A DNA stretch of 64,000 nt from Oscillatoriales cyanobacterium (GTDB taxonomy: Bacteria; Cyanobacteriota; Cyanobacteriia; Cyanobacteriales; Laspinemataceae), in contig JAABRM010000004.1 of NCBI GenBank assembly GCA_011390955.1, positions 124,001 to 188,000 on the forward strand, read 5' to 3'. The notes beneath the pieces were generated by a model, which saw only the letters and a program-made list of their open reading frames with translations, ran no database searches and was not told where the DNA came from. The position numbers and the translations under genes were made by a program. Position 1 is the stretch's first letter. Each line of letters begins with the position of its first letter. Shown here piece after piece: positions 180 through 48,886 of this stretch.

Positions 180-1589
180 TTAATGTTGAAGATTTTTGAC
201 ATATTGCTGAAAAGCAGGAATAACTTGAAACACAGTTTCCTGGTTGTGAATCTTTTGTGCAATTAAACCGCGTCTGACTAAAGATTGAATGGCGGAAAAT
301 ACATCGGTTGGCGAACCTTGATAGGTTTTTAATAATTGAGGCAAATTAGCCGGGGCTGCTTGAGCGATCGATGCATTTAACACCTGTTTTTCTGTGGGGG
401 AAAGTCTCTGATACTGTTGCTGTAAAATTAGGGTTAATTCATCTCCTAAGATGGAGAACTCTGATTGATAACTGAGATAGGCAGCGACTCTCCCAGCAAA
501 TAAATTATTGATAGTCCGAGCGGTCAATTTTAAGTATAGGGGATTGGCTTGAAATAAGTTGATTAATTCTCCCCATTTATCTTGGTCTAATAAATCATTT
601 TGTTGGAGAATTTCTCTGGCAGCGGCTTCACTGACCCCGGTGAGATATAAAACCTGTACTCCCTGATAATCCGGTGGAAAAGTGAGAATTTCTAAAGCCG
701 GTTCCGAACTGGTGAAAATTAGACAACTATTATGATCCATTTCTCCCAGAAGTTTAAAAAAAGTGCCGTAATTTTCGTAACCTGTTTTATAAGTGCCGGA
801 AAGTTGCTCACCCTGAAAAAGTTGTTGCCCGTCGTCGCAAATGATTAGACACCGAGAATTGCGTAAATATTCCAGCAATATTGCCAGTTGAGCCTCTATG
901 CGATCGGGCAAGTCTGTAACTGGGCGATCGCAAATAAATTCAGTTAATTTTTTCAGGGTGGTTTCTAGGGGTGGAGAAGTGCGGAAGCTATGCCAGAAAA
1001 TGCAATCAAATTGAGTCTGAATTTGGGTAATTAAATGACGGGCGATCGCGCTTTTGCCAGTACCACTAATTCCCAAAATAGCTACGAGGCGACATTGTTT
1101 TTGGATAATCCAGTTTTCCAGGGTAGTGAGTTCACAAGTGCGACGATAAAATTTGGCGATCGCTGGTGCATCTCTTAAATTTAATCTGGGTTTGTCTTGG
1201 GGATTTTCTTCAGTTGCGGGTGGTGGAGGGGGTGAGTTTTGTTTAGCTTTTGAATGATGTAGGGGTTCGGTACAAACATTTAGGTGACTTTGTACAAAGT
1301 TAAAATCCCCGAAAGTTGAATGATAAACTTGATATCTTTCAATGGCGGATCTAAAACTAGACTTGGTGACATTTTCCTCTAATATCTCTGAAATCATTTG
1401 CCATAACTTTGAAGCCACATTACCCACATGGCGATCGCCACATTTAAATTCCTTAGCAATCTGGGAATATTTTTTCCCTTGCCAACTACCCCGCAATATT
1501 TTTTGTTGCAGATTATCTAAATGCTTGCCGGTTTTGGCTAAAACTAGCTCGTCAGCGACCCTTAAGGCTTCGTTAATATCCATATCCAA
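180..1589 (-). CDS. STAND (NB-ARC-like) P-loop ATPase with N-terminal HTH-like domain, paralogue 1
   Basis: 469 residues. Residues 1-85 are a helical domain resembling the N-terminal helix-turn-helix found on cyanobacterial NB-ARC and vWA-MoxR-associated (VMAP) proteins (LVLAKTGKHLDNLQQKIL, then YSQIAKEFKC). A Pro-rich linker (119-125) precedes an ATPase with Walker A GISGTGKSA (173-181), Walker B LIICDD (248-253), a sensor-like FTSS and a GxP-like NPLYLKL motif, then a C-terminal winged-helix-like region. There are no WD40 or TPR repeats, so it is short for a STAND protein. It is paralogous to the protein at 47312-48718. It may start at the third codon, matching the paralogue's MDI. It is divergent from 1807-2496, with a GTG-phased array between them. 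STAND proteins are signal-responsive switches in conflict and regulation; its target is unknown. Confidence 0.85.
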   Translation of the reverse strand: MDMDINEALRVADELVLAKTGKHLDNLQQKILRGSWQGKKYSQIAKEFKCGDRHVGNVASKLWQMISEILEENVTKSSFRSAIERYQVYHSTFGDFNFVQSHLNVCTEPLHHSKAKQNSPPPPPATEENPQDKPRLNLRDAPAIAKFYRRTCELTTLENWIIQKQCRLVAILGISGTGKSAIARHLITQIQTQFDCIFWHSFRTSPPLETTLKKLTEFICDRPVTDLPDRIEAQLAILLEYLRNSRCLIICDDGQQLFQGEQLSGTYKTGYENYGTFFKLLGEMDHNSCLIFTSSEPALEILTFPPDYQGVQVLYLTGVSEAAAREILQQNDLLDQDKWGELINLFQANPLYLKLTARTINNLFAGRVAAYLSYQSEFSILGDELTLILQQQYQRLSPTEKQVLNASIAQAAPANLPQLLKTYQGSPTDVFSAIQSLVRRGLIAQKIHNQETVFQVIPAFQQYVKNLQH

Positions 1590-1626
1590 GTAAATACAGA
1601 GACTGCGGGTATTATACCAAATTTTT

Positions 1627-1686
1627 GTGATATTTTGTGAGATTTTATTAAAAAATGTGATATTTTCTGAGATTATCTGACAAGTT
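1627..1686. promoter_or_regulatory. 10-bp-phased GTG array upstream of STAND paralogue 1 (candidate operator)
   Basis: Six consecutive 10-base units begin at 1627, 1637, 1647, 1657, 1667 and 1677. Units 1 and 4 are identical (GTGATATTTT), unit 2 is GTGAGATTTT and unit 5 CTGAGATTAT; unit 3 is degenerate. One unit per helical turn, 38-97 bases upstream of the STAND start and inside the divergent intergenic region, suggests cooperative binding on one DNA face. A similar array precedes the second STAND gene. That the protein's own HTH-like domain binds it is inference. Confidence 0.5.
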
Positions 1687-1806
1687 TTTAGTTTTTTTGT
1701 CTAAAAAAATAGAGTAAATTAATGATCAAAAATGATATTTAAAACTTGATGAAATTTATTATTTTTGGTTAGTATATAAGAAATGAGCCATAGAAAATAG
1801 CTATAA

Positions 1807-32296: not shown

Positions 32297-33442
32297 TTAA
32301 TTACGCAACTGCACCGGCATAAGTAAATGAGTCATTTTTGCCCCACTTAAGGGATTCAAAACTACTGGAGAAGTTGCCGAATTAAGCTGAATTTGAATTT
32401 CATTCGCTCCCAGATTTTTCAACGACTCCATCGCATATTTCACATTAAATGCAATTTCCAGATTTCCCCCAGAAACTTGGGCAGGAATGGACTCTTGCCC
32501 ACTGCCCACATCTTGAGCTTCTACGGATAACGAAAGCTGCTGATTATCGCTATCGATCGTAAATTTAACGATATCATTTTTCTGGGATGCTAAAATTGCA
32601 ATCCGTTCCAATGCCGCGAGTAACTGTTTCCGTTCCACGTTCACTTGACGTTCAAACTGGGTGGGAATCAGTTGCCGATAAGCGGGATATTTCCCTTCTA
32701 AAGTCCGACTGGTCAGCCGTTGATCCGCCAACTCAAACACTACTTGACCGGGATCTAAGTAAACGACCAGAGATAAAGCTTCGTCTTGAGATTGTGCCTG
32801 ACGCTGGGTAATCATGCGCTCTAATTCCCGCAGGGCTCTAGCCGGAACCGTAACTTCAAAGGGTTCTTCATCGGACTCCTTCGGGTTTTCGGTTTCCACC
32901 AAAGCCAAGCGATGACCATCGGTGGCGGCAAATTCCAGGGTTTCTGGTTGGACAATAATATGTAACCCGGTGAGGACTTGCTTGGTTTCATCATTGCTGG
33001 TGGCAAACAAAGACCCCCGCAACCCTTCGATTAACGCTTCTGCCGAAAGATAAACCGCTTCCCGATTGGCAATTTCTGGCAGGGAAGGAAATTCTTCTGC
33101 CCCCATCCCCCGGACTTGATACTTTCCGGTTTGGCTGGTTAATGTCACCATTGCCTGTGCGGTTTCATCATCGATGGTAATGTCCCCGTTTGATAGACGG
33201 GAGACAATATCATTGAGTAATTTCGCGGGCAGGGTGAGTTGGCCACCCACTTCGATTTCAGCGGAGAAACTGGTACAAAGTCCCAGACTGAGGTCAAACC
33301 CGGTGAGTTGAACTCGTTGATGTTCTCGATCGGCGGTGAGTAGCACATTGGCGAGAATGGGATGATTAGGCCGAGAGGGCACCGCGCGACTGACTAATGA
33401 TAGGTTGCTGTGGAGGTCGCTTTGGCTACAAGTAAATTTCAT
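32297..33442 (-). CDS. dnaN: DNA polymerase III sliding clamp (beta subunit)
   Basis: 381 residues. KFTCSQSDLHSNLSLVSRAV at the N-terminus, LTGFDLSLG, the middle FAATDGHRLALVE and the terminal LSGAKMTHLLMPVQL match the beta clamp (typically ATDGHRLA and MPMRL). It tethers polymerase III to DNA as a ring-shaped dimer. Transcribed away from oriC, with dnaA upstream, the common order dnaA-oriC-dnaN. Confidence 0.97.
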   Translation of the reverse strand: MKFTCSQSDLHSNLSLVSRAVPSRPNHPILANVLLTADREHQRVQLTGFDLSLGLCTSFSAEIEVGGQLTLPAKLLNDIVSRLSNGDITIDDETAQAMVTLTSQTGKYQVRGMGAEEFPSLPEIANREAVYLSAEALIEGLRGSLFATSNDETKQVLTGLHIIVQPETLEFAATDGHRLALVETENPKESDEEPFEVTVPARALRELERMITQRQAQSQDEALSLVVYLDPGQVVFELADQRLTSRTLEGKYPAYRQLIPTQFERQVNVERKQLLAALERIAILASQKNDIVKFTIDSDNQQLSLSVEAQDVGSGQESIPAQVSGGNLEIAFNVKYAMESLKNLGANEIQIQLNSATSPVVLNPLSGAKMTHLLMPVQLRN

Positions 33443-33476
33443 GGCAATTAAATAGTCGGGATATCAATCATACGAT

Positions 33477-33505
33477 AAGCCTAAGTAAAAATTTAGGCTT
33501 TTTTT
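33477..33505 (+). terminator. Terminator-like hairpin just upstream of dnaN, reading antisense
   Basis: AAGCCTAA (33477-33484) pairs with TTAGGCTT (33493-33500), followed by TTTTT to 33505, so the T-tract is on the + strand. It lies 34 bases before the dnaN start codon and points towards oriC. Termination of antisense transcription from dnaN or protection of oriC is possible. Confidence 0.55.
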
Positions 33506-33545
33506 GGCTGGACGTTTGAATCATTGCATTTAATCAGGGCGCGAT

Positions 33546-33790
33546 CGCCGAGAGTGCGGCTCTCGGCGACCTGTGGAAACTGTGGAAAACTTTCCAGGTG
33601 ATTCCCTGATTTGAGAGTTGAATTGGGAAATATCTGTGGAAAACCTGTGGAAAAATTGGGGAAAACTGGGGTAATCTACCAGAGCTTTGAGAAAATTTGT
33701 CGCCTAGACTACAAATAGTTGGGCGGTAAACTCAGGGTGGATGGCCAAAAACCCATCGGTTTTCCACAGAATTAGGGTGAGTTTTCCACA
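33546..33790. other. Chromosomal replication origin candidate (oriC) with DnaA boxes
   Basis: Six DnaA boxes of the TTTTCCACA type: TGTGGAAAC at 33572, TGTGGAAAA at 33581, 33635 and 33646 (minus orientation), and TTTTCCACA at 33760 and 33782. A strong CGCCGAGAG/CTCTCGGCG hairpin (33546-33568) borders the cluster. The location between dnaA and dnaN matches the known origin of Anabaena sp. PCC 7120. An AT-rich unwinding region is not obvious, so the exact edges are open. Confidence 0.8.
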
Positions 33791-33797
33791 GGATATG

Positions 33798-35195
33798 CTA
33801 GGGGTTTGGACGACCGCGATCGCGTCCTTGACGATTAGCTAAGTGAATGCGATCGTTTAATTGGCGTAACATATTGGCTAAATCCGGGTCTTGCTGTATC
33901 CGGTGGGCAATTTTTTCGCAACTATAAAGTACCGTAGTATGATCTTTGCCGCCAAATTCTTCCCCAATCTTTGGCAAACTTAAATCCGTATGTTGCCGCA
34001 TCAAATACATGGCAATTTGACGGGCTTGACTAATTTCTCGGCGGCGAGAATTACTTTTTAACTCTTCCATAGAAACCCCAAATACAGAAATCACCGCATT
34101 CATAACCACATCTGGAGTGGCCTCTAGTTTTTCCGTTTGCGGATTTAAAATTGGGGCAATATTCTGTACCGTCATCGGTAATCCAGAAATAGAAATATAC
34201 GCCACGGTGCGAATTAATGCTCCTTCTAATTCCCGAATATTTGAAGTGAACTGTCTGGCAATATATTCAATCACATCCCTGGGCAAACGCATATTTTCAT
34301 ATTCGGCTTTTTTCTGCAAAATTGCCATGCGAGTTTCTAAATCAGGGAGTTGAATATCCGCAATTAATCCCATAGAAAAGCGCGAACATAAACGGTCTTG
34401 TAATCGCGGAATTTGATTTGGGGGACGATCTGCCGCTAAGACCACTTGCTTGCCCGCTTCATGTAAGGTATTAAAGGTATGAAAAAATTCTTCTTGGGTA
34501 TATTCTTTTCCTTCAATAAACTGAATATCATCGACTAATAATACATCCGCTGCCCGATAATGTTCGCGGAAACTTTGCATACTATCTTTGCGGATCGCTA
34601 CAATTAAATCATTGGTAAATTGTTCCGTAGAGACATAAAATATCCGGGTGTTGGGCGAAATTTCTAAGCGATAATGCCCGATCGCCTGCATTAAATGAGT
34701 TTTGCCCAAACCCACTCCCCCACAGAGAAATAGGGGATTAAATTCCCGTCCGGGAGACTCAGCCACGGCCAAAGATGCCGCATGAGCCATGCGATTATTA
34801 GAACCGACCACAAAACTAGAAAAATTATATTTAAGATTTAGTTCTGACGGGCGGGGTTGATGGTTGGCAGTGGCTTCCACTGCGCCTCCAGGAGTGGGTG
34901 AAGGCCAAATATATTCGGCGGCTTCGGTCCCAGAGGCACTTGCGGCCTGATCCGTTGTGATATAAATTTCCACGGGATGTCGCAAAATCTCTTCCACTAC
35001 TTCGGCAATGGTTTTGATGTAATATTTCTGCAACCAATTCCGCGCAAAAGGATTCGGAGTTCTAATCACTAAACAGTAATTTTCTAATTGCTCCGCCTTT
35101 GCTGTCTTAATCCAGGTTTCAAAGGTCGGACGACTCAATTGCAGTTGTAAGCGTTCGAGCACTTGATTCCACAGATTTTCCAGGGCAGTTTCCAC
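33798..35195 (-). CDS. dnaA: Chromosomal replication initiator DnaA
   Basis: 465 residues. Domain III Walker [16 protein letters not shown], Walker [11 protein letters not shown], and the domain IV DNA-binding signature [17 protein letters not shown]. Domain I is at the N-terminus ([17 protein letters not shown]). ATP-DnaA binds the boxes at 33572-33790 and opens the origin. Its 3' end abuts the last box. Confidence 0.98.
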
Positions 35196-41316: not shown

Positions 41317-41480
41317 ACAGAAACCGGGTTTATTTTTGTGCTTCCGCAGTTAACTGTTATTTCCACCACAGAAACCCAGTTTCTTTTTCGGGGCAAAGAA
41401 ACCAGGAAGACAGAAACCGGGTTTCTTTTTGTATTGCCACAGTTAACTGTTATTTCCACCACAGAAACCCGGTTTCTTTT
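41317..41480. repeat. AGAAACCGGGTTTCT palindrome-pair repeats, units 2-3
   Basis: Units at 41317-41387 and 41410-41480, each with outer AGAAACC(C/A)GGTTTCT palindromes and a central CAGTTAACTG palindrome. They lie head to tail between the QQG-repeat gene and the gene ending at 41534. Confidence 0.8.
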
Positions 41481-41533
41481 TCGGGGCAAAGAGGCGATCG
41501 CTGCCTGATTTCTCCTAACTCATTTAAGTCTCA

Positions 41534-42503: not shown

Positions 42504-42527
42504 CTCTTGCCACAGAAACCAGGGAGA

Positions 42528-42780
42528 CAGAAACCGGGTTTCTTTTTGTGCTGTCACAGTTAACTGTTATTTCCACCACAGAAACCCGGTTTCTTTTTCG
42601 GGGCAAAGAAACGGGCACACAGAAACCGGGTTTCTTTTTGTGCTGCCACAGTTAACTGTTATTTTCACAACAGAAACCCGGTTTCTTTTTCTCCGCACAG
42701 AAACGGGTACAAAGAAACCGGGTTTCTTTTTTGCTTTCACAGTTAACTGTTATTTTCACAACAGAAACCCGGTTTCTTTG
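42528..42780. repeat. AGAAACCGGGTTTCT palindrome-pair repeats, units 4-6
   Basis: Units at 42528-42597, 42620-42689 and 42711-42780, in tandem at about 92-base spacing. Each holds two outer palindromes and a central CAGTTAACTG. This is the gap between the DUF7689 module and the gene at 42865. Confidence 0.8.
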
Positions 42781-43624: not shown

Positions 43625-44143
43625 TCAAAGACCTATTGTAAAACTAAATTTTCTTGTATTTGCCCATACACTGCCGCAATAAGCTGTTACGTGCCCCTTA
43701 TAGCTTCCCCGATTGAAATACTTGTTGGGAATATATAAGGTAAAATCTTCGTATGTGCTATATTCATACCCTGGTCGAAAATCTTCGCTAGTTGATAGTT
43801 GATTATTTTTTGTCTGATAACCAGAGATAGTGCTTCTGACCTTGCGGCCATTTTTGTAGTAGAAATAAGCAACAGCCCGACAATTACTATTTTTCAGATG
43901 GGCAGTATCAAAGTCCAGAACCATTTTTATGCTCTTATTTGATGACCTATTAACATTGTGGTAAATGTCGAGGTCTGTTATGTTGATTCGGGGCTGGCTT
44001 TCCCAAATAAAAAAACCTACAACAAAAAAACCAGCGATCGCCGAAAAAATTAAGCGGCTGGGGTCAAAAAGTTTTGGCCTTTGGGATCTTTCCAAAGCCC
44101 GGAGAATTCTTCGGCTAATTTCTTTTTCATCATCATGTCTCAT
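43625..44143 (-). CDS. Single-pass membrane protein with an extracytoplasmic domain, unknown
   Basis: 172 residues. Charged N-terminal cytoplasmic part (MRHDDEKEISRRILRALERS), one membrane segment (LIFSAIAGFFVVGFFIW, about 31-47), then a beta-rich domain (NITDLDIYHNVNR, YFYYKNGRKVRSTISGYQ, HVTAYCGSVWANTRKFSF). Its start overlaps the end of the upstream AAA+ gene by 11 bases, so they are co-translated. Unrecognised family. Confidence 0.65.
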   Translation of the reverse strand: MRHDDEKEISRRILRALERSQRPKLFDPSRLIFSAIAGFFVVGFFIWESQPRINITDLDIYHNVNRSSNKSIKMVLDFDTAHLKNSNCRAVAYFYYKNGRKVRSTISGYQTKNNQLSTSEDFRPGYEYSTYEDFTLYIPNKYFNRGSYKGHVTAYCGSVWANTRKFSFTIGL

Positions 44144-45263
44144 CAGTATTTTCTTCCTTGGCTATGGCTGCTTTAACTTTTTCCCCGATTTTCTTCTTCT
44201 CTTCGGGAGTTAAACTTCTGGATTCATCCTCGGAAGACACATTAATACGAGCTTTTTTAATGGCTTCGATAGAATTGATGAAATCCGTTAATTCAAGCTG
44301 ATTTTTGCCTTTGCGAGCCGCTCTCATGGCCGCATCAATCACGGCATTTTTAATATCTCGACCGCAAACATCATCAACTTTAGCTAATTCTGCTAAGGAC
44401 ACATTTCCTGCTTTTGGCATCTTGTCGGGAAGATGTTTCGCCCAGATTTTTTGACGGCAAGTTTCGTCTGGCATGGGAAAGTTGACATGACGAACTCTGG
44501 TTTCAAAGGCTTTATCATAGTTTTGCACCAGATTAGTGGAAAAAATAACCACGCCGCGAAATCTTTCTAAGCAGATAAGTAACTGACTCCGCATGGAGTT
44601 AATCGCTTGTTCTGACCCTTGATTAACGTTTGTGAGTCGTTTGGAAAGTAAAGAGTCAGCTTCATCGATAAACAACAAAGAATTTTCTCGCTCTGCTGCC
44701 ATGAAAATTGCCTCAACATTTTTCGGCCCTTCCCCGTGATACATACTCTCAATCTGAGCGTAACTGGCGACCAAAATCGGGCGGTTGATTTTAGAGGATA
44801 TCGCGTGTGCAGCTAAAGTTTTACCCGTTCCCGGTTTGCCATGAAAGTTGAGGGCGGTACGAGGAAACGGCTCAATTTGTCGCAAACCCCAGTCATCAAA
44901 AACTTTGGATTCTAACTCAATTAAGTCAACCGCCAACAGTAAATCTTCTTCTACTTGTTTGGTGATAACTAATTGCTCGAAAGTAAATAAAGGTTGGGTG
45001 GGTTGATATTTTTTGGCGCGATCTTCAGGGGACAGATCGTAGTTAGATTTGTTTTCCGCAGCATCTTTAGATCCGTCCGATGATTTTTGACCGTTTTTCT
45101 GATTTGCCGATTGAGTCCCTACAGTAATCTGGATATCCTCAAGATTGGTTTCATCCAGTAGCTTATTGACTGCATTAAAAAGTCTAGAACGACAAACAGC
45201 AGCAACCGCTTCAGGAACTCGATCGGGAATACCTTGTACAATAAGAGAAGAAGCTTTATTCAT
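44133..45263 (-). CDS. AAA+ ATPase (classical AAA, FtsH/spastin-like clade)
   Basis: 376 residues. N-terminal about 90 residues are an extra helical/acidic domain. Walker A GKPGTGKT (142-149), pore-like loop YHGEGPKNV (175-183), Walker B LLFIDEAD (196-203), sensor 1 FSTN (241-244), Arg finger in FETRVRHV (253-260), a four-helix lid to about 350 and a charged tail. Single AAA module, likely hexameric. The gene overlaps the membrane-protein gene. The substrate is unknown; genes around it suggest a membrane-associated remodelling function. Confidence 0.85.
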   Translation of the reverse strand: MNKASSLIVQGIPDRVPEAVAAVCRSRLFNAVNKLLDETNLEDIQITVGTQSANQKNGQKSSDGSKDAAENKSNYDLSPEDRAKKYQPTQPLFTFEQLVITKQVEEDLLLAVDLIELESKVFDDWGLRQIEPFPRTALNFHGKPGTGKTLAAHAISSKINRPILVASYAQIESMYHGEGPKNVEAIFMAAERENSLLFIDEADSLLSKRLTNVNQGSEQAINSMRSQLLICLERFRGVVIFSTNLVQNYDKAFETRVRHVNFPMPDETCRQKIWAKHLPDKMPKAGNVSLAELAKVDDVCGRDIKNAVIDAAMRAARKGKNQLELTDFINSIEAIKKARINVSSEDESRSLTPEEKKKIGEKVKAAIAKEENTDET

Positions 45264-45946: not shown

Positions 45947-46324
45947 TTACGACCAAAAGGCTACCTCACGGTAACGATGTGCTTCTTTGATTTCTGGATC
46001 GACCTGTCGAGTTTTAATGTATCTGGCGTCATGGATGTCTTCTGTTTGGTTGTTAAAAATAATCTGGGCATACTCTCCACTATCAAGAGCATTTTTTATA
46101 GTAGCTCTAAGATATTCTCGGTTTCTTAGTGACCTCCGATCATTATTAACTATCAAATAAGCAAAATTTTGGAACCATTGATATAGTATGCTAACTGTTA
46201 AATCTATGAAATAAACAGTTGTGTAAATACCAGCAGCAACCCCGGCCATGACAGCCGTCCACATTAAAATTGAGAATGGATCCACTGTTTTTCTCCTTGT
46301 TACACAATAATTAGAAAGTGGCAA
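45947..46324 (-). CDS. Small membrane protein of the cluster, paralogue of 45469-45819
   Basis: 125 residues. Hydrophobic segment (MWTAVMAGVAAGIYTTVYFI, about 22-41), then WFQNFAYLIVNNDRRSLRNR, and a soluble tail DARYIKTRQVDPEIKEAHRY. The start overlaps the 3' end of the upstream gene by 14 bases, so the pair is coupled. Membrane anchored with a small cytoplasmic domain. Family unrecognised. Confidence 0.65.
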   Translation of the reverse strand: MPLSNYCVTRRKTVDPFSILMWTAVMAGVAAGIYTTVYFIDLTVSILYQWFQNFAYLIVNNDRRSLRNREYLRATIKNALDSGEYAQIIFNNQTEDIHDARYIKTRQVDPEIKEAHRYREVAFWS

Positions 46325-47048
46325 TAATTAAATCTTTGTCACCAAAGCAATCTTGCAACTCTTCGTCTAACTCTCTAGCAACAAACTGGCGACCATAGGG
46401 TTTACCAAATGAGTCACAAACCAATTCATTGTTTTTGTCCAGAAACATTTGGACGATATGATAGCCTTGGAAATGAGCCTTACGCAGGATCGCGCCTTTC
46501 TTGATTTTTGAATTTCGGGGTCGATCGCTCACGAAATATTTTATGGCCTCATCATAGGTAATCAAGGGGATAACTTCTGGTAATCTCAGCAGATCGCGCA
46601 ACAAATCCCCAAATTGACTAAAAACATCCTGTTCAATGCGATCGCCCGATAGATTTTTCTCTCTTAATTGGACAAACACAAAATCTCGATCGCCGAAAGC
46701 ATTGGTCAATTTTCGGTCTAATGTTTTCGCAACTATCTGACGACCGTAGGGACTACGATCTTGACGGCAAACAATCTGGTTATATCGATCTAAAAATATC
46801 TGCCCTAACACTTGACCTTCAGCGTGTGCTTGACGGATAATTGCTCCATTCTTGACCGCAGAATTTGGGGGGCGATCGCTCTGTAAATAACTAATCACCT
46901 CATCAAAAGTTATCACTGCCTGTACTTCCGGCACTGCCAGAATACGCGGCGACCATTCCTTAAACTGAGCAACTATTCGCCGTTCATCCTCGCGGGTGAT
47001 TTTTTGATCGCCATCAGAGGAGTCTTTAGAAAACCAGCTTAGAATCAT
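46311..47048 (-). CDS. Soluble protein made of two tandem repeats of a 90-residue domain, unknown
   Basis: 245 residues. Domain 1 (about 60-150) and domain 2 (about 160-245) align: ITFDEVISYLQSDRPPNS with ITYDEAIKYFVSDRPRNS, GAIIRQAHAEGQVLGQIFLD with GAILRKAHFQGYHIVQMFLD, and YGRQIVAKTLDRKL with YGRQFVARELDEEL. No catalytic signature was recognised. First gene of the leftward cluster; its divergent neighbour is the second STAND ATPase. Confidence 0.65.
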   Translation of the reverse strand: MILSWFSKDSSDGDQKITREDERRIVAQFKEWSPRILAVPEVQAVITFDEVISYLQSDRPPNSAVKNGAIIRQAHAEGQVLGQIFLDRYNQIVCRQDRSPYGRQIVAKTLDRKLTNAFGDRDFVFVQLREKNLSGDRIEQDVFSQFGDLLRDLLRLPEVIPLITYDEAIKYFVSDRPRNSKIKKGAILRKAHFQGYHIVQMFLDKNNELVCDSFGKPYGRQFVARELDEELQDCFGDKDLIIATF

Positions 47049-47176: not shown

Positions 47177-47280
47177 GTGGCATTTGGTGGGGGATTTTTC
47201 AACTTTTTTGGCTCCGACTTGGTGACAAAAAGTGGCATAAGGTGGCAAAAGTGGCATTTGGTGTGATAAAGTAACGTCAA
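47177..47280. promoter_or_regulatory. GTG-phased array upstream of STAND paralogue 2 (candidate operator)
   Basis: From 47222 on, units begin at 47222, 47232, 47242, 47251, 47261 and 47271 (steps of 10, 10, 9, 10, 10), for example GTGGCATAAG, GTGGCATTTG and GTGTGATAAA. An isolated pair, GTGGCATTTG then GTGGGGG, is at 47177-47193. The array ends 32-35 bases before the STAND start, in the shared region with the leftward cluster, so it could control both. Consensus GTGRYATWWK. Confidence 0.55.
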
Positions 47281-47311: not shown

Positions 47312-48718
47312 ATGATGGATATCCAAGAGGCGATCGAGTGGACCGACGATCGCGTTTTTGCTAAAACCGGAAAGCGCCTCGACTCACTGCAACGGACTAT
47401 ATTAGAAGGGACTTTAGAAAATCAAAGTTACAAGCAGGTGGCGGAGGATTATCACTGCACTAAAGACCATACTAAAAGAGTCGCTGCGGAATTATGGAAG
47501 CTCCTGTCGGATGTGTTGGGTGAAGAGGTAAAGAAAGCAAATTTTAAATCTACATTAAAACGAATAAAAAATTCTAATATCTCAAATTTTGGGTCTGACT
47601 ATATACAAATTATGGGTGACATTAACTTCTGTAACGAACATTGCCCCTATCCCAAAGTAAAGAAAGCCACAAAAACCCGATCGCCCTCTGCCAATTCCTC
47701 CACAAATTCCCCTAGCAAACAACCAGAACAACGCCACAATTTAACCGAAGCCCCGGAATGGGAGCATCATAACAACCGCCTTGCAGAAATAACCACCTTA
47801 AAAAAGTGGATTTTGGCCGAAAAAATCCGCCTGGTCACTATCTTTGGCTTGCCGGGAATGGGCAAAACCACCCTCGGTCGAGAACTGGTAGAACAAATTA
47901 AAGATAACTTTGACTATATCCTTTGGCGCAACTGTAGCGAAACTCTCACCCGAAAATCTTTCCAAACCAATTTAATTGAGTTTTTTTCCCAAAATCAGGA
48001 AACCAAATCATCATCCCTCATCGACTATTTGCGTTTAAATCGTTGCCTAATCATTCTCGACGACTTACAAGAACTGTTTGCCCCTGAAAAATTCGCAGGC
48101 ACTTATCTGCCAGAAGCCGAAAGTTATGGTAAGTTCTTAAAAGAAATGGCGCGATCGCCTCACAACAGTTGCATCCTCATCCTGAGTTGGGAAAAACCCA
48201 CAGAAATTGCCACCTTAGAAGGAGAAAACCGTCATTGCCGCAGCTTACAAATGGGTGGTTTGGGAGAAGCAGCAGCGGAAATATTAAGCAACAAAGGGTT
48301 AAAGGATGACGATAAATGGGGGGAACTAATCCAACTTTATAGCGGCAACCCGTCCTGGTTAAATATTATTGCGGCTACTATCGCAGACTTATTTAACCGC
48401 AGCGTCGATCGCTACCTATCCTATCCCGGTTTATTTCTCGGAGACTTAGAGCCCATATTAGAAGAATATTATCAACGGTTATCCGCACCAGAGAAAAGCG
48501 TCATCCTCTGGTTAGCCAACCAAAAAGCAGTAGATATTTCCCAAAAACCAGGAGTAGGGGCGATTCACGAATCGCCCCTACCTTTATCGGAAGCTGACTT
48601 TATCAAAGCCATCAACTCTTTAAGAAAACGGGGTTTAATCGAAAAAGCCACGGATAACGAATCGTCCCTTTTCGATATTCCCGCTTTGGTTAAAAATTAT
48701 GTGAAAAATTACTCATAA
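47312..48718 (+). CDS. STAND (NB-ARC-like) P-loop ATPase with N-terminal HTH-like domain, paralogue 2
   Basis: 468 residues. N-terminal helical/HTH-like domain (1-88: RVFAKTGKRLDSLQRTI, then KQVAEDYHCTKDHTKR), Ser-rich linker (120-140), Walker A GLPGMGKTT (179-187), Walker B CLIILDD (245-251), a GxP-like GNPSWLNI motif, and a C-terminal winged-helix-like part. Shares the whole architecture with 180-1589. A 28-base palindromic repeat is inserted in frame near its 3' end (48554-48581), adding GVGAIHESPL. The start may be the second Met. It is divergent from the membrane/AAA+ cluster. Confidence 0.85.
   Translation: MMDIQEAIEWTDDRVFAKTGKRLDSLQRTILEGTLENQSYKQVAEDYHCTKDHTKRVAAELWKLLSDVLGEEVKKANFKSTLKRIKNSNISNFGSDYIQIMGDINFCNEHCPYPKVKKATKTRSPSANSSTNSPSKQPEQRHNLTEAPEWEHHNNRLAEITTLKKWILAEKIRLVTIFGLPGMGKTTLGRELVEQIKDNFDYILWRNCSETLTRKSFQTNLIEFFSQNQETKSSSLIDYLRLNRCLIILDDLQELFAPEKFAGTYLPEAESYGKFLKEMARSPHNSCILILSWEKPTEIATLEGENRHCRSLQMGGLGEAAAEILSNKGLKDDDKWGELIQLYSGNPSWLNIIAATIADLFNRSVDRYLSYPGLFLGDLEPILEEYYQRLSAPEKSVILWLANQKAVDISQKPGVGAIHESPLPLSEADFIKAINSLRKRGLIEKATDNESSLFDIPALVKNYVKNYS
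48554..48581. repeat. GTAGGGGCGATTC palindrome inserted in the STAND coding sequence
   Basis: GTAGGGGCGATTC pairs with GAATCGCCCCTAC around AC; the same repeat type occurs at 62664-62692 and elsewhere. It reads in frame. Confidence 0.7.
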
Positions 48719-48720
48719 AT

Positions 48721-48747
48721 AAGGACACGGCATTGCCGTGTCCCTAG
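48721..48747. repeat. GGACACGGCATTGCCGTGTCC hairpin just after the STAND stop codon
   Basis: Palindrome immediately 3' of the STAND gene, a likely terminator hairpin. 48830-48888 holds the ACCCCCCTTGAAACCGCCAT repeat (compare 16133-16196). Confidence 0.65.
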
Positions 48748-48886
48748 GGGTATGATAGCGCTAGAGAAAAAATTTCAGCAAAATCCCTATTTAATACCAA
48801 TTTCAATCAATTATGCCACAAACGAAATCTTCAACCCCCCTTGAAACCGCCATCGGCTTTGCACGAATGAAAGCACTCTTGTCTAA

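What the first reader, a model, noticed from the sequence alone, without database searches (positions are those of the whole stretch)
47177..47280. Matching GTG-phased array before the second STAND ATPase and its divergent membrane cluster
Units start at 47222, 47232, 47242, 47251, 47261 and 47271; consensus GTGRYATWWK. The distance to the STAND start (about 32-90 bases) matches the other array. The region is shared with the leftward cluster, so one regulator could control both an ATPase switch and a membrane effector set.
Basis: partly seen in the sequence, partly recalled or inferred. Interest (0 to 1): 0.72.

Follow-up and report, generated by a model that had tools for sequence, protein, structure and literature searches.

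The report
Private promoter repeat arrays of STAND proteins
In filamentous cyanobacteria, dozens of related ATPase "switch" genes each carry their own ~10-base repeat array at their promoter, and the repeat spelling changes together with the DNA-reading helix of the protein the gene encodes, so each protein very probably reads and controls its own gene through a readable recognition code.

Summary
The array is real: five units GTGACA/GTGGCA/GTGGCA/GTGGCA/GTGTGA at 47222-47266 in 10/10/9/10-bp steps, abutting a -10 (TAAAGT, 47267-47272); 0 of 1000 shuffles match it.

What it is: the downstream gene has an N-terminal LuxR/sigma4-like HTH plus an NB-ARC STAND ATPase. The genome holds about 31 such HTH genes. 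Across 308 loci 64% have a phased array upstream (0.9% of ordinary segments), each with its own unit, RT-NNN-A. The unit covaries with the HTH recognition helix (residues 51, 52, 55), hardly with the rest of the domain (r 0.40 against 0.11). In phylogenetically independent pairs residue 55 ranks first of 415 tests (P = 7e-7). The GTGGCA array occurs only at this promoter in its genome.

So the array is most probably the gene's own operator: private autoregulation by a STAND protein. The sign is undetermined: the geometry (no -35, array on the -10) resembles SARP/AfsR activator promoters; repression is also possible. Control of the leftward cluster is unsupported. No earlier description was found in the open-access library searched.

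The parts
47222..47266 (+). proximal array: 5 units GTGACA, GTGGCA, GTGGCA, GTGGCA, GTGTGA (starts 47222, 47232, 47242, 47251, 47261)
   Evidence: score 32.6 against shuffle maximum 18.5; conserved in L239, L069 and L115
47177..47190 (+). distal pair of units (GTGGCATTTG GTGG), 74 bp = 7 helical turns from the last strong unit
   Evidence: sequence; conserved in L239 and L069
47267..47272 (+). -10 element TAAAGT directly abutting the last unit; no -35 consensus
   Evidence: unit-to-minus-10 distance of exactly 6 in 63 of 99 family cases
47315..48718 (+). HTH-NB-ARC STAND protein (467 aa); alternative start at 47312
   Evidence: Pfam NB-ARC 1.9e-10 and NACHT 2.3e-8; Walker A GLPGMGKTT; A2 alignment
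47315..47563 (+). N-terminal HTH domain (residues 1-83); recognition helix from residue 50, specificity residues D51, H52, K54, R55
   Evidence: AlphaFold2 mean pLDDT 95.6; covariation
180..1583 (-). second HTH-STAND paralogue in the window
1611..1693 (-). its own, different array (ATATCACA/ATCTCACA) and -10 TATAAT (1616-1611)
46311..47048 (-). divergent gene, two repeats of an uncharacterised domain; syntenic in L069, L239, L240; not shown to be controlled by the array

Best explanation
The array is the operator of the gene it precedes and is read by that gene's own product. The N-terminal HTH of the STAND protein binds one unit (RT-NNN-A) per helical turn, head to tail on one face of the DNA; the NB-ARC domain can couple neighbouring protomers, so occupancy of the array should depend on the ATPase switch. 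Residues 51, 52 and 55 of the recognition helix set the NNN bases (for example D51 with G, G51 with C, D55 with G), so each paralogue, or small class of paralogues, has its own operator. Shown here: the array, its position on the -10, its recurrence in the family, and covariation of unit with helix. Inferred: binding, cooperativity, ATP dependence, and the sign. For the sign I lean slightly to activation (about 50%, repression 40%), because the arrays replace a -35 as in SARP/AfsR promoters.
For: Arrays upstream of 64% of 308 HTH loci against 0.9% of 786 ordinary segments and 1 of 37 other window promoters. Own-genome period-10 score 15.96 against 5.43, with harmonics at 20 and 30. Last unit abuts the -10 (63 of 99). 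Distal units stay in helical phase: spacings drift to 52, 62, 72-74, 84, 94 bp. Covariation: residue 51 D with G 9/10, G with C 26/30; 55 D with G 32/36; 52 H with G 41/47, N never with G; 54 A with A 4/4. Motif similarity correlates with helix identity (0.40), hardly with the rest (0.11); in 500 permutations no best column matched residue 55 overall or residues 51 and 55 at p2. Independent pairs: residue 55 P = 7e-7, first of 415 tests. Prediction from helix residues among proteins under 50% identical: 66% of NNN bases right, 39% from the rest of the domain, 61% from the commonest base. Held-out genomes: p2 19/28 right, commonest base 13/29. Neighbouring case: L240 (divergent gene kept) has helix HDRIKQ and array GTGTAA, the window KDHTKR and GTGGCA; D51 kept with G, 52 and 55 changed with the other two bases. 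Array private in its genome.
Against: No binding or expression data. About a third of loci show no significant array, including NB-ARC-WD40 relatives of Nostocales and Synechocystis pSYSG. Several paralogues share GTCGGA, so privacy is by class, not absolute. Held-out gain at p3 is small (21/29 against 19/29) and at p4 the rule did worse than the commonest base (24/29 against 27/29). The link of residue 54 to p0 is not significant after permutation. Residue 64 also ranks high at p4, which a simple contact model does not explain.
Confidence: 0.82

Rival explanations
1. One shared regulator (a global factor or alternative sigma factor) reads both STAND arrays and also drives the leftward membrane/AAA cluster.
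For: Divergent arrangement conserved in three related loci; all arrays share the R-T-NNN-A frame and the -10 register.
Against: Units differ between paralogues and follow each gene's own recognition helix; the two window arrays differ in gene orientation; no leftward array, and the leftward proximal region is not conserved.
Confidence: 0.07
2. A variant of the best explanation: the same self-reading array, but as an autorepressor. Units next to the -10 and over the -35 region occupy the grooves sigma would use and block RNA polymerase.
For: Array covers the whole spacer up to the -10; the HTH fold resembles sigma region 4; a repressor would keep a potentially costly switch protein low.
Against: Promoters lack a -35 (20% with at least 4 of 6 matches, 14% in shuffles), as expected of activated promoters; AfsR/SARP precedent is activation (PMC10936776).
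Confidence: 0.4
3. Hitchhiking: array and HTH are simply inherited together and the array has another role (for example recombination or phase variation by repeat slippage).
For: Bodies of paralogues are mosaic: in SR001 two paralogues share about 90-95% of much of the ATPase but differ in HTH and array.
Against: Motif similarity hardly depends on identity outside the helix (r 0.03 to 0.11) and helix columns top the ranking, also in independent pairs. Unit number is nearly constant among close orthologues while unit letters change (L008, L043, L044), unlike slippage.
Confidence: 0.06

Closest known systems
SARP activators with NB-ARC (AfsR and other medium/large SARPs, Streptomyces)
   Same: N-terminal DNA-binding domain before an NB-ARC/NOD; sites are direct repeats one helical turn apart, just upstream of the -10, with a poor -35; side-by-side protomers (PMC10936776, PMC10972967).
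   Different: SARP domain is an OmpR-type winged HTH plus BTAD with 11-bp repeats on target genes; here a LuxR/sigma4-like HTH, no BTAD, 9-10-bp units in longer arrays, on the gene's own promoter, with units diversified per paralogue.
MalT (STAND transcription factor)
   Same: STAND ATPase with a DNA-binding domain; multimerisation drives cooperative binding to MalT boxes (PMC4381067).
   Different: From my own knowledge: MalT has its HTH at the C-terminus, has a repeat-type sensor, and regulates maltose genes. Here the HTH is N-terminal and the 467-aa protein shows no sensor repeats.
Cyanobacterial 'sigma factors' with NB-ARC accessory domain (PMC11119718)
   Same: Region-4-like HTH with NB-ARC in cyanobacteria; these HTH domains match Sigma70_r4 weakly.
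   Different: No region 2/3 in the window protein, so it is not a sigma factor; that paper describes no promoter arrays in the passages read.

Membership tests
STAND NTPase (NB-ARC/AP-ATPase) | NB-ARC domain with Walker A and Walker B | tested here: met
   Pfam NB-ARC 40.9 bits (cut-off 23.5), NACHT 34.5 (26.7); GLPGMGKTT and CLIILDD in the translation; plant NLRs are the nearest solved relatives
STAND NTPase (NB-ARC/AP-ATPase) | C-terminal repeat sensor (TPR, WD40, LRR) | tested here: not met
   no repeat family in Pfam scan of the window protein; some relatives elsewhere are annotated as WD40 proteins
SARP | OmpR-type winged HTH and BTAD domain | tested here: not met
   no Trans_reg_C or BTAD match; the AlphaFold2 model is all-helical, LuxR/sigma4-like
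SARP | helically phased direct repeats next to the -10, poor -35 | tested here: met
MalT/LAL | C-terminal LuxR HTH after the NOD | tested here: not met
   the HTH is at residues 1-83, NB-ARC at 160-252
sigma-70 factor | region 2 (-10 recognition) | tested here: not met
   no Sigma70_r2 match
autoregulator of its own gene | product binds its own promoter | not testable with these tools
   only covariation is available

The most novel reading that the evidence does not exclude
Filamentous cyanobacteria run tens of parallel, largely insulated self-reading STAND switches per genome. ATPase bodies are interchangeable by recombination, while HTH and operator co-diversify as a specificity cassette under a simple residue-to-base code, and promoter arrays serve as scaffolds on which the NB-ARC oligomer assembles.
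Probability: 0.4. Interest if true: 0.85.

Novelty: new variant of a known kind. Interest (0 to 1): 0.72.

Why it matters
It gives a large, natural set of protein-DNA specificity pairs (tens per genome) that are readable from sequence, a promoter-level handle on cyanobacterial STAND proteins whose function is unknown, and possibly a ready-made set of separable regulators. It also shows how an expanded NB-ARC family could limit cross-talk.

Tried and rejected
(2) A leftward array: none. (3) Known HTH family: no Pfam or NCBIfam family above its cut-off for the window HTH, only weak sigma-r4/GerE likeness in relatives; PDB sequence search nothing significant. (4) A first -10-anchored chain finder mis-registered A-rich loci and was replaced by the core-fit model. 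(5) AlphaFold2 of the full protein was poor (pLDDT 51.6) and is not used for argument beyond the HTH. (6) Arrays upstream of NB-ARC-WD40 relatives on plasmids (Synechocystis pSYSG, Calothrix, Nostoc, Chroococcidiopsis, Acaryochloris) and in phage PaV-LD: none significant. (8) Five searches of open-access papers found no description of the arrays.

Full report
Observation. The sequence 47222-47266 holds five units GTGACA, GTGGCA, GTGGCA, GTGGCA, GTGTGA in 10/10/9/10-bp steps, followed without a gap by TAAAGT (47267-47272), which fits a -10. A distal pair lies at 47177-47190. A model that fits a 5-base core plus A/T-rich spacers gives 32.6 for this promoter; 1000 dinucleotide shuffles reach at most 18.5. 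Only this place in the genome holds three consecutive GTGRCA units with AT-rich spacers; the two other hits have spacers GCCG and CTCA, which look like other repeats.

The gene. 47315-48718 encodes 467 aa: an N-terminal domain of 83 aa, then an NB-ARC STAND ATPase with Walker A GLPGMGKTT and Walker B CLIILDD, without sensor repeats. AlphaFold2 gives the N-terminal domain a mean pLDDT of 95.6: helices 3-18, 24-34, 39-46, 50-68, 74-82, a LuxR/GerE/sigma-region-4-like HTH (best Z 8.1, which is not high), with 50-68 as the recognition helix. The named relatives nearest in sequence are from Planktothricoides sp. SR001.

The family. The genome has about 31 copies of this HTH, among them the window's other STAND gene (start codon 1583, minus strand). 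Their upstream regions show a striking signal: mean period-10 repeat score 15.96 against 5.43 in control windows, with harmonics at 20 and 30 bp. The genes have their own units, for example GTGGCA here, GTCGGA, GTACGA, GTAGGA, GTGGGA, ATCGGA, GTTCGG in others. Genomes of the same family carry 6 to 55 copies; 129 of 195 genomes of the class have the HTH. Over 308 loci 64% have a significant array; in ordinary segments 0.9%, in other window promoters 1 of 37.

Geometry. Where a -10 is recognisable it starts exactly 6 bases after the start of a unit in 63 of 99 cases, so the array touches the -10. The -35 position shows no consensus (20% with at least 4 of 6 matches, 14% in shuffles). Distal units extend to about 100 bp, and their spacing drifts to 52, 62, 72-74, 84 and 94 bp, which is close to the 10.4-10.5-bp helical repeat. 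The sites therefore lie on one face of the DNA.

Covariation. In 77 non-redundant loci the similarity of units correlates with identity of the recognition helix (r = 0.42) and not with the rest of the domain (0.03); the best columns are 55, 51 and 52. With 110 loci: 0.40 and 0.11; in 500 label permutations no best column reaches residue 55 for the whole unit, residues 51 and 55 for base p2, or residue 55 for p3. In 55 phylogenetically independent pairs residue 55 against base p4 gives P = 7e-7 and against p3 2e-4, the top two of 415 tests; 51 against p2 gives 0.009. Helix residues predict the NNN bases among proteins under 50% identical (66%), where the rest of the domain does not (39%; always guessing the commonest base gives 61%). 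On genomes fetched afterwards, rules fixed beforehand predict p2 in 19 of 28 loci (commonest base 13 of 29); p3 gains little and p4 nothing. From my own knowledge, 51 and 55 correspond to the positions of sigma region 4 that read the -35; this was not tested here.

Locus-level evidence. Orthologues L239 and L069 keep the GTGGCA-type array and the helix KDHTKR. L240, beside the same divergent gene, has helix HDRIKQ and array GTGTAA: residue 51 and its base are unchanged, 52 and 55 and their bases have changed. Two SR001 paralogues share about 88-96% of the middle of the ATPase DNA yet only 51-60% in the HTH, with different arrays, as if the HTH and array formed a cassette.

Mechanism. I conclude that each array is read by the product of its gene. 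Binding, cooperativity through NB-ARC, ATP dependence and the sign are inferred. SARP/AfsR promoters, with turn-spaced direct repeats next to the -10 and a poor -35, are activated by an N-terminal DNA-binding domain whose attached NOD responds to ATP (PMC10936776). That favours activation; occupancy of the whole spacer would equally allow repression.

What is not supported. The two window arrays are not alike in gene orientation. A leftward array is absent, and the DNA next to the leftward gene is not conserved in L239. The leftward gene is syntenic, so a functional link remains possible.

Limits. All evidence is sequence-based. About a third of loci have no detectable array, including NB-ARC-WD40 relatives. 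Classes such as GTCGGA are shared by several paralogues. The papers library holds open-access papers only, so absence of a report there is weak evidence of novelty.

Noticed in passing
44133-45263 (-): AAA ATPase of the leftward cluster resembles the IetA component of the IetAS anti-phage system (PADLOC E 1.7e-24), with small putative membrane proteins (43625, 45469, 45947) and no protease gene seen beside it.
   Followed up: partly
46311-47048 (-): Protein of two tandem copies of an uncharacterised ~110-aa domain, no Pfam hit, conserved divergently from the HTH-STAND gene in three loci.
   Followed up: partly
window 47315-48886 compared with L239 and L245: Mosaic: the window gene matches L239 in HTH and array but L245 at its 3' end and downstream gene; the middle of the ATPase is near-identical to both, suggesting gene conversion between paralogues.
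   Followed up: partly
L003:1501-1968, L020:1501-2100: Short HTH proteins (156-220 aa) without ATPase also carry arrays; L020 seems to hold a second sigma-r4-like HTH at its C-terminus.
   Followed up: no
L255:1183-1500 (Planktothrix phage PaV-LD ORF120L): A cyanophage encodes a stand-alone 105-aa protein related to this HTH; possibly a regulator taken from a host.
   Followed up: no
upstream regions of L011, L013, L025: Some subfamilies use 9-bp rather than 10-bp steps, which on B-DNA would wind around the helix.
   Followed up: no
32297-35195 and 33571-33671: dnaN and dnaA lie about 350 bp apart with repeated CTGTGGAAAA (DnaA-box-like) between them: probably near the replication origin.
   Followed up: no
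41317-41492 and 42527-42779: Tandem ~92-bp repeats containing ACAGAAACCGGGTTTCTTTTT, with copies also near related loci in SR001.
   Followed up: no
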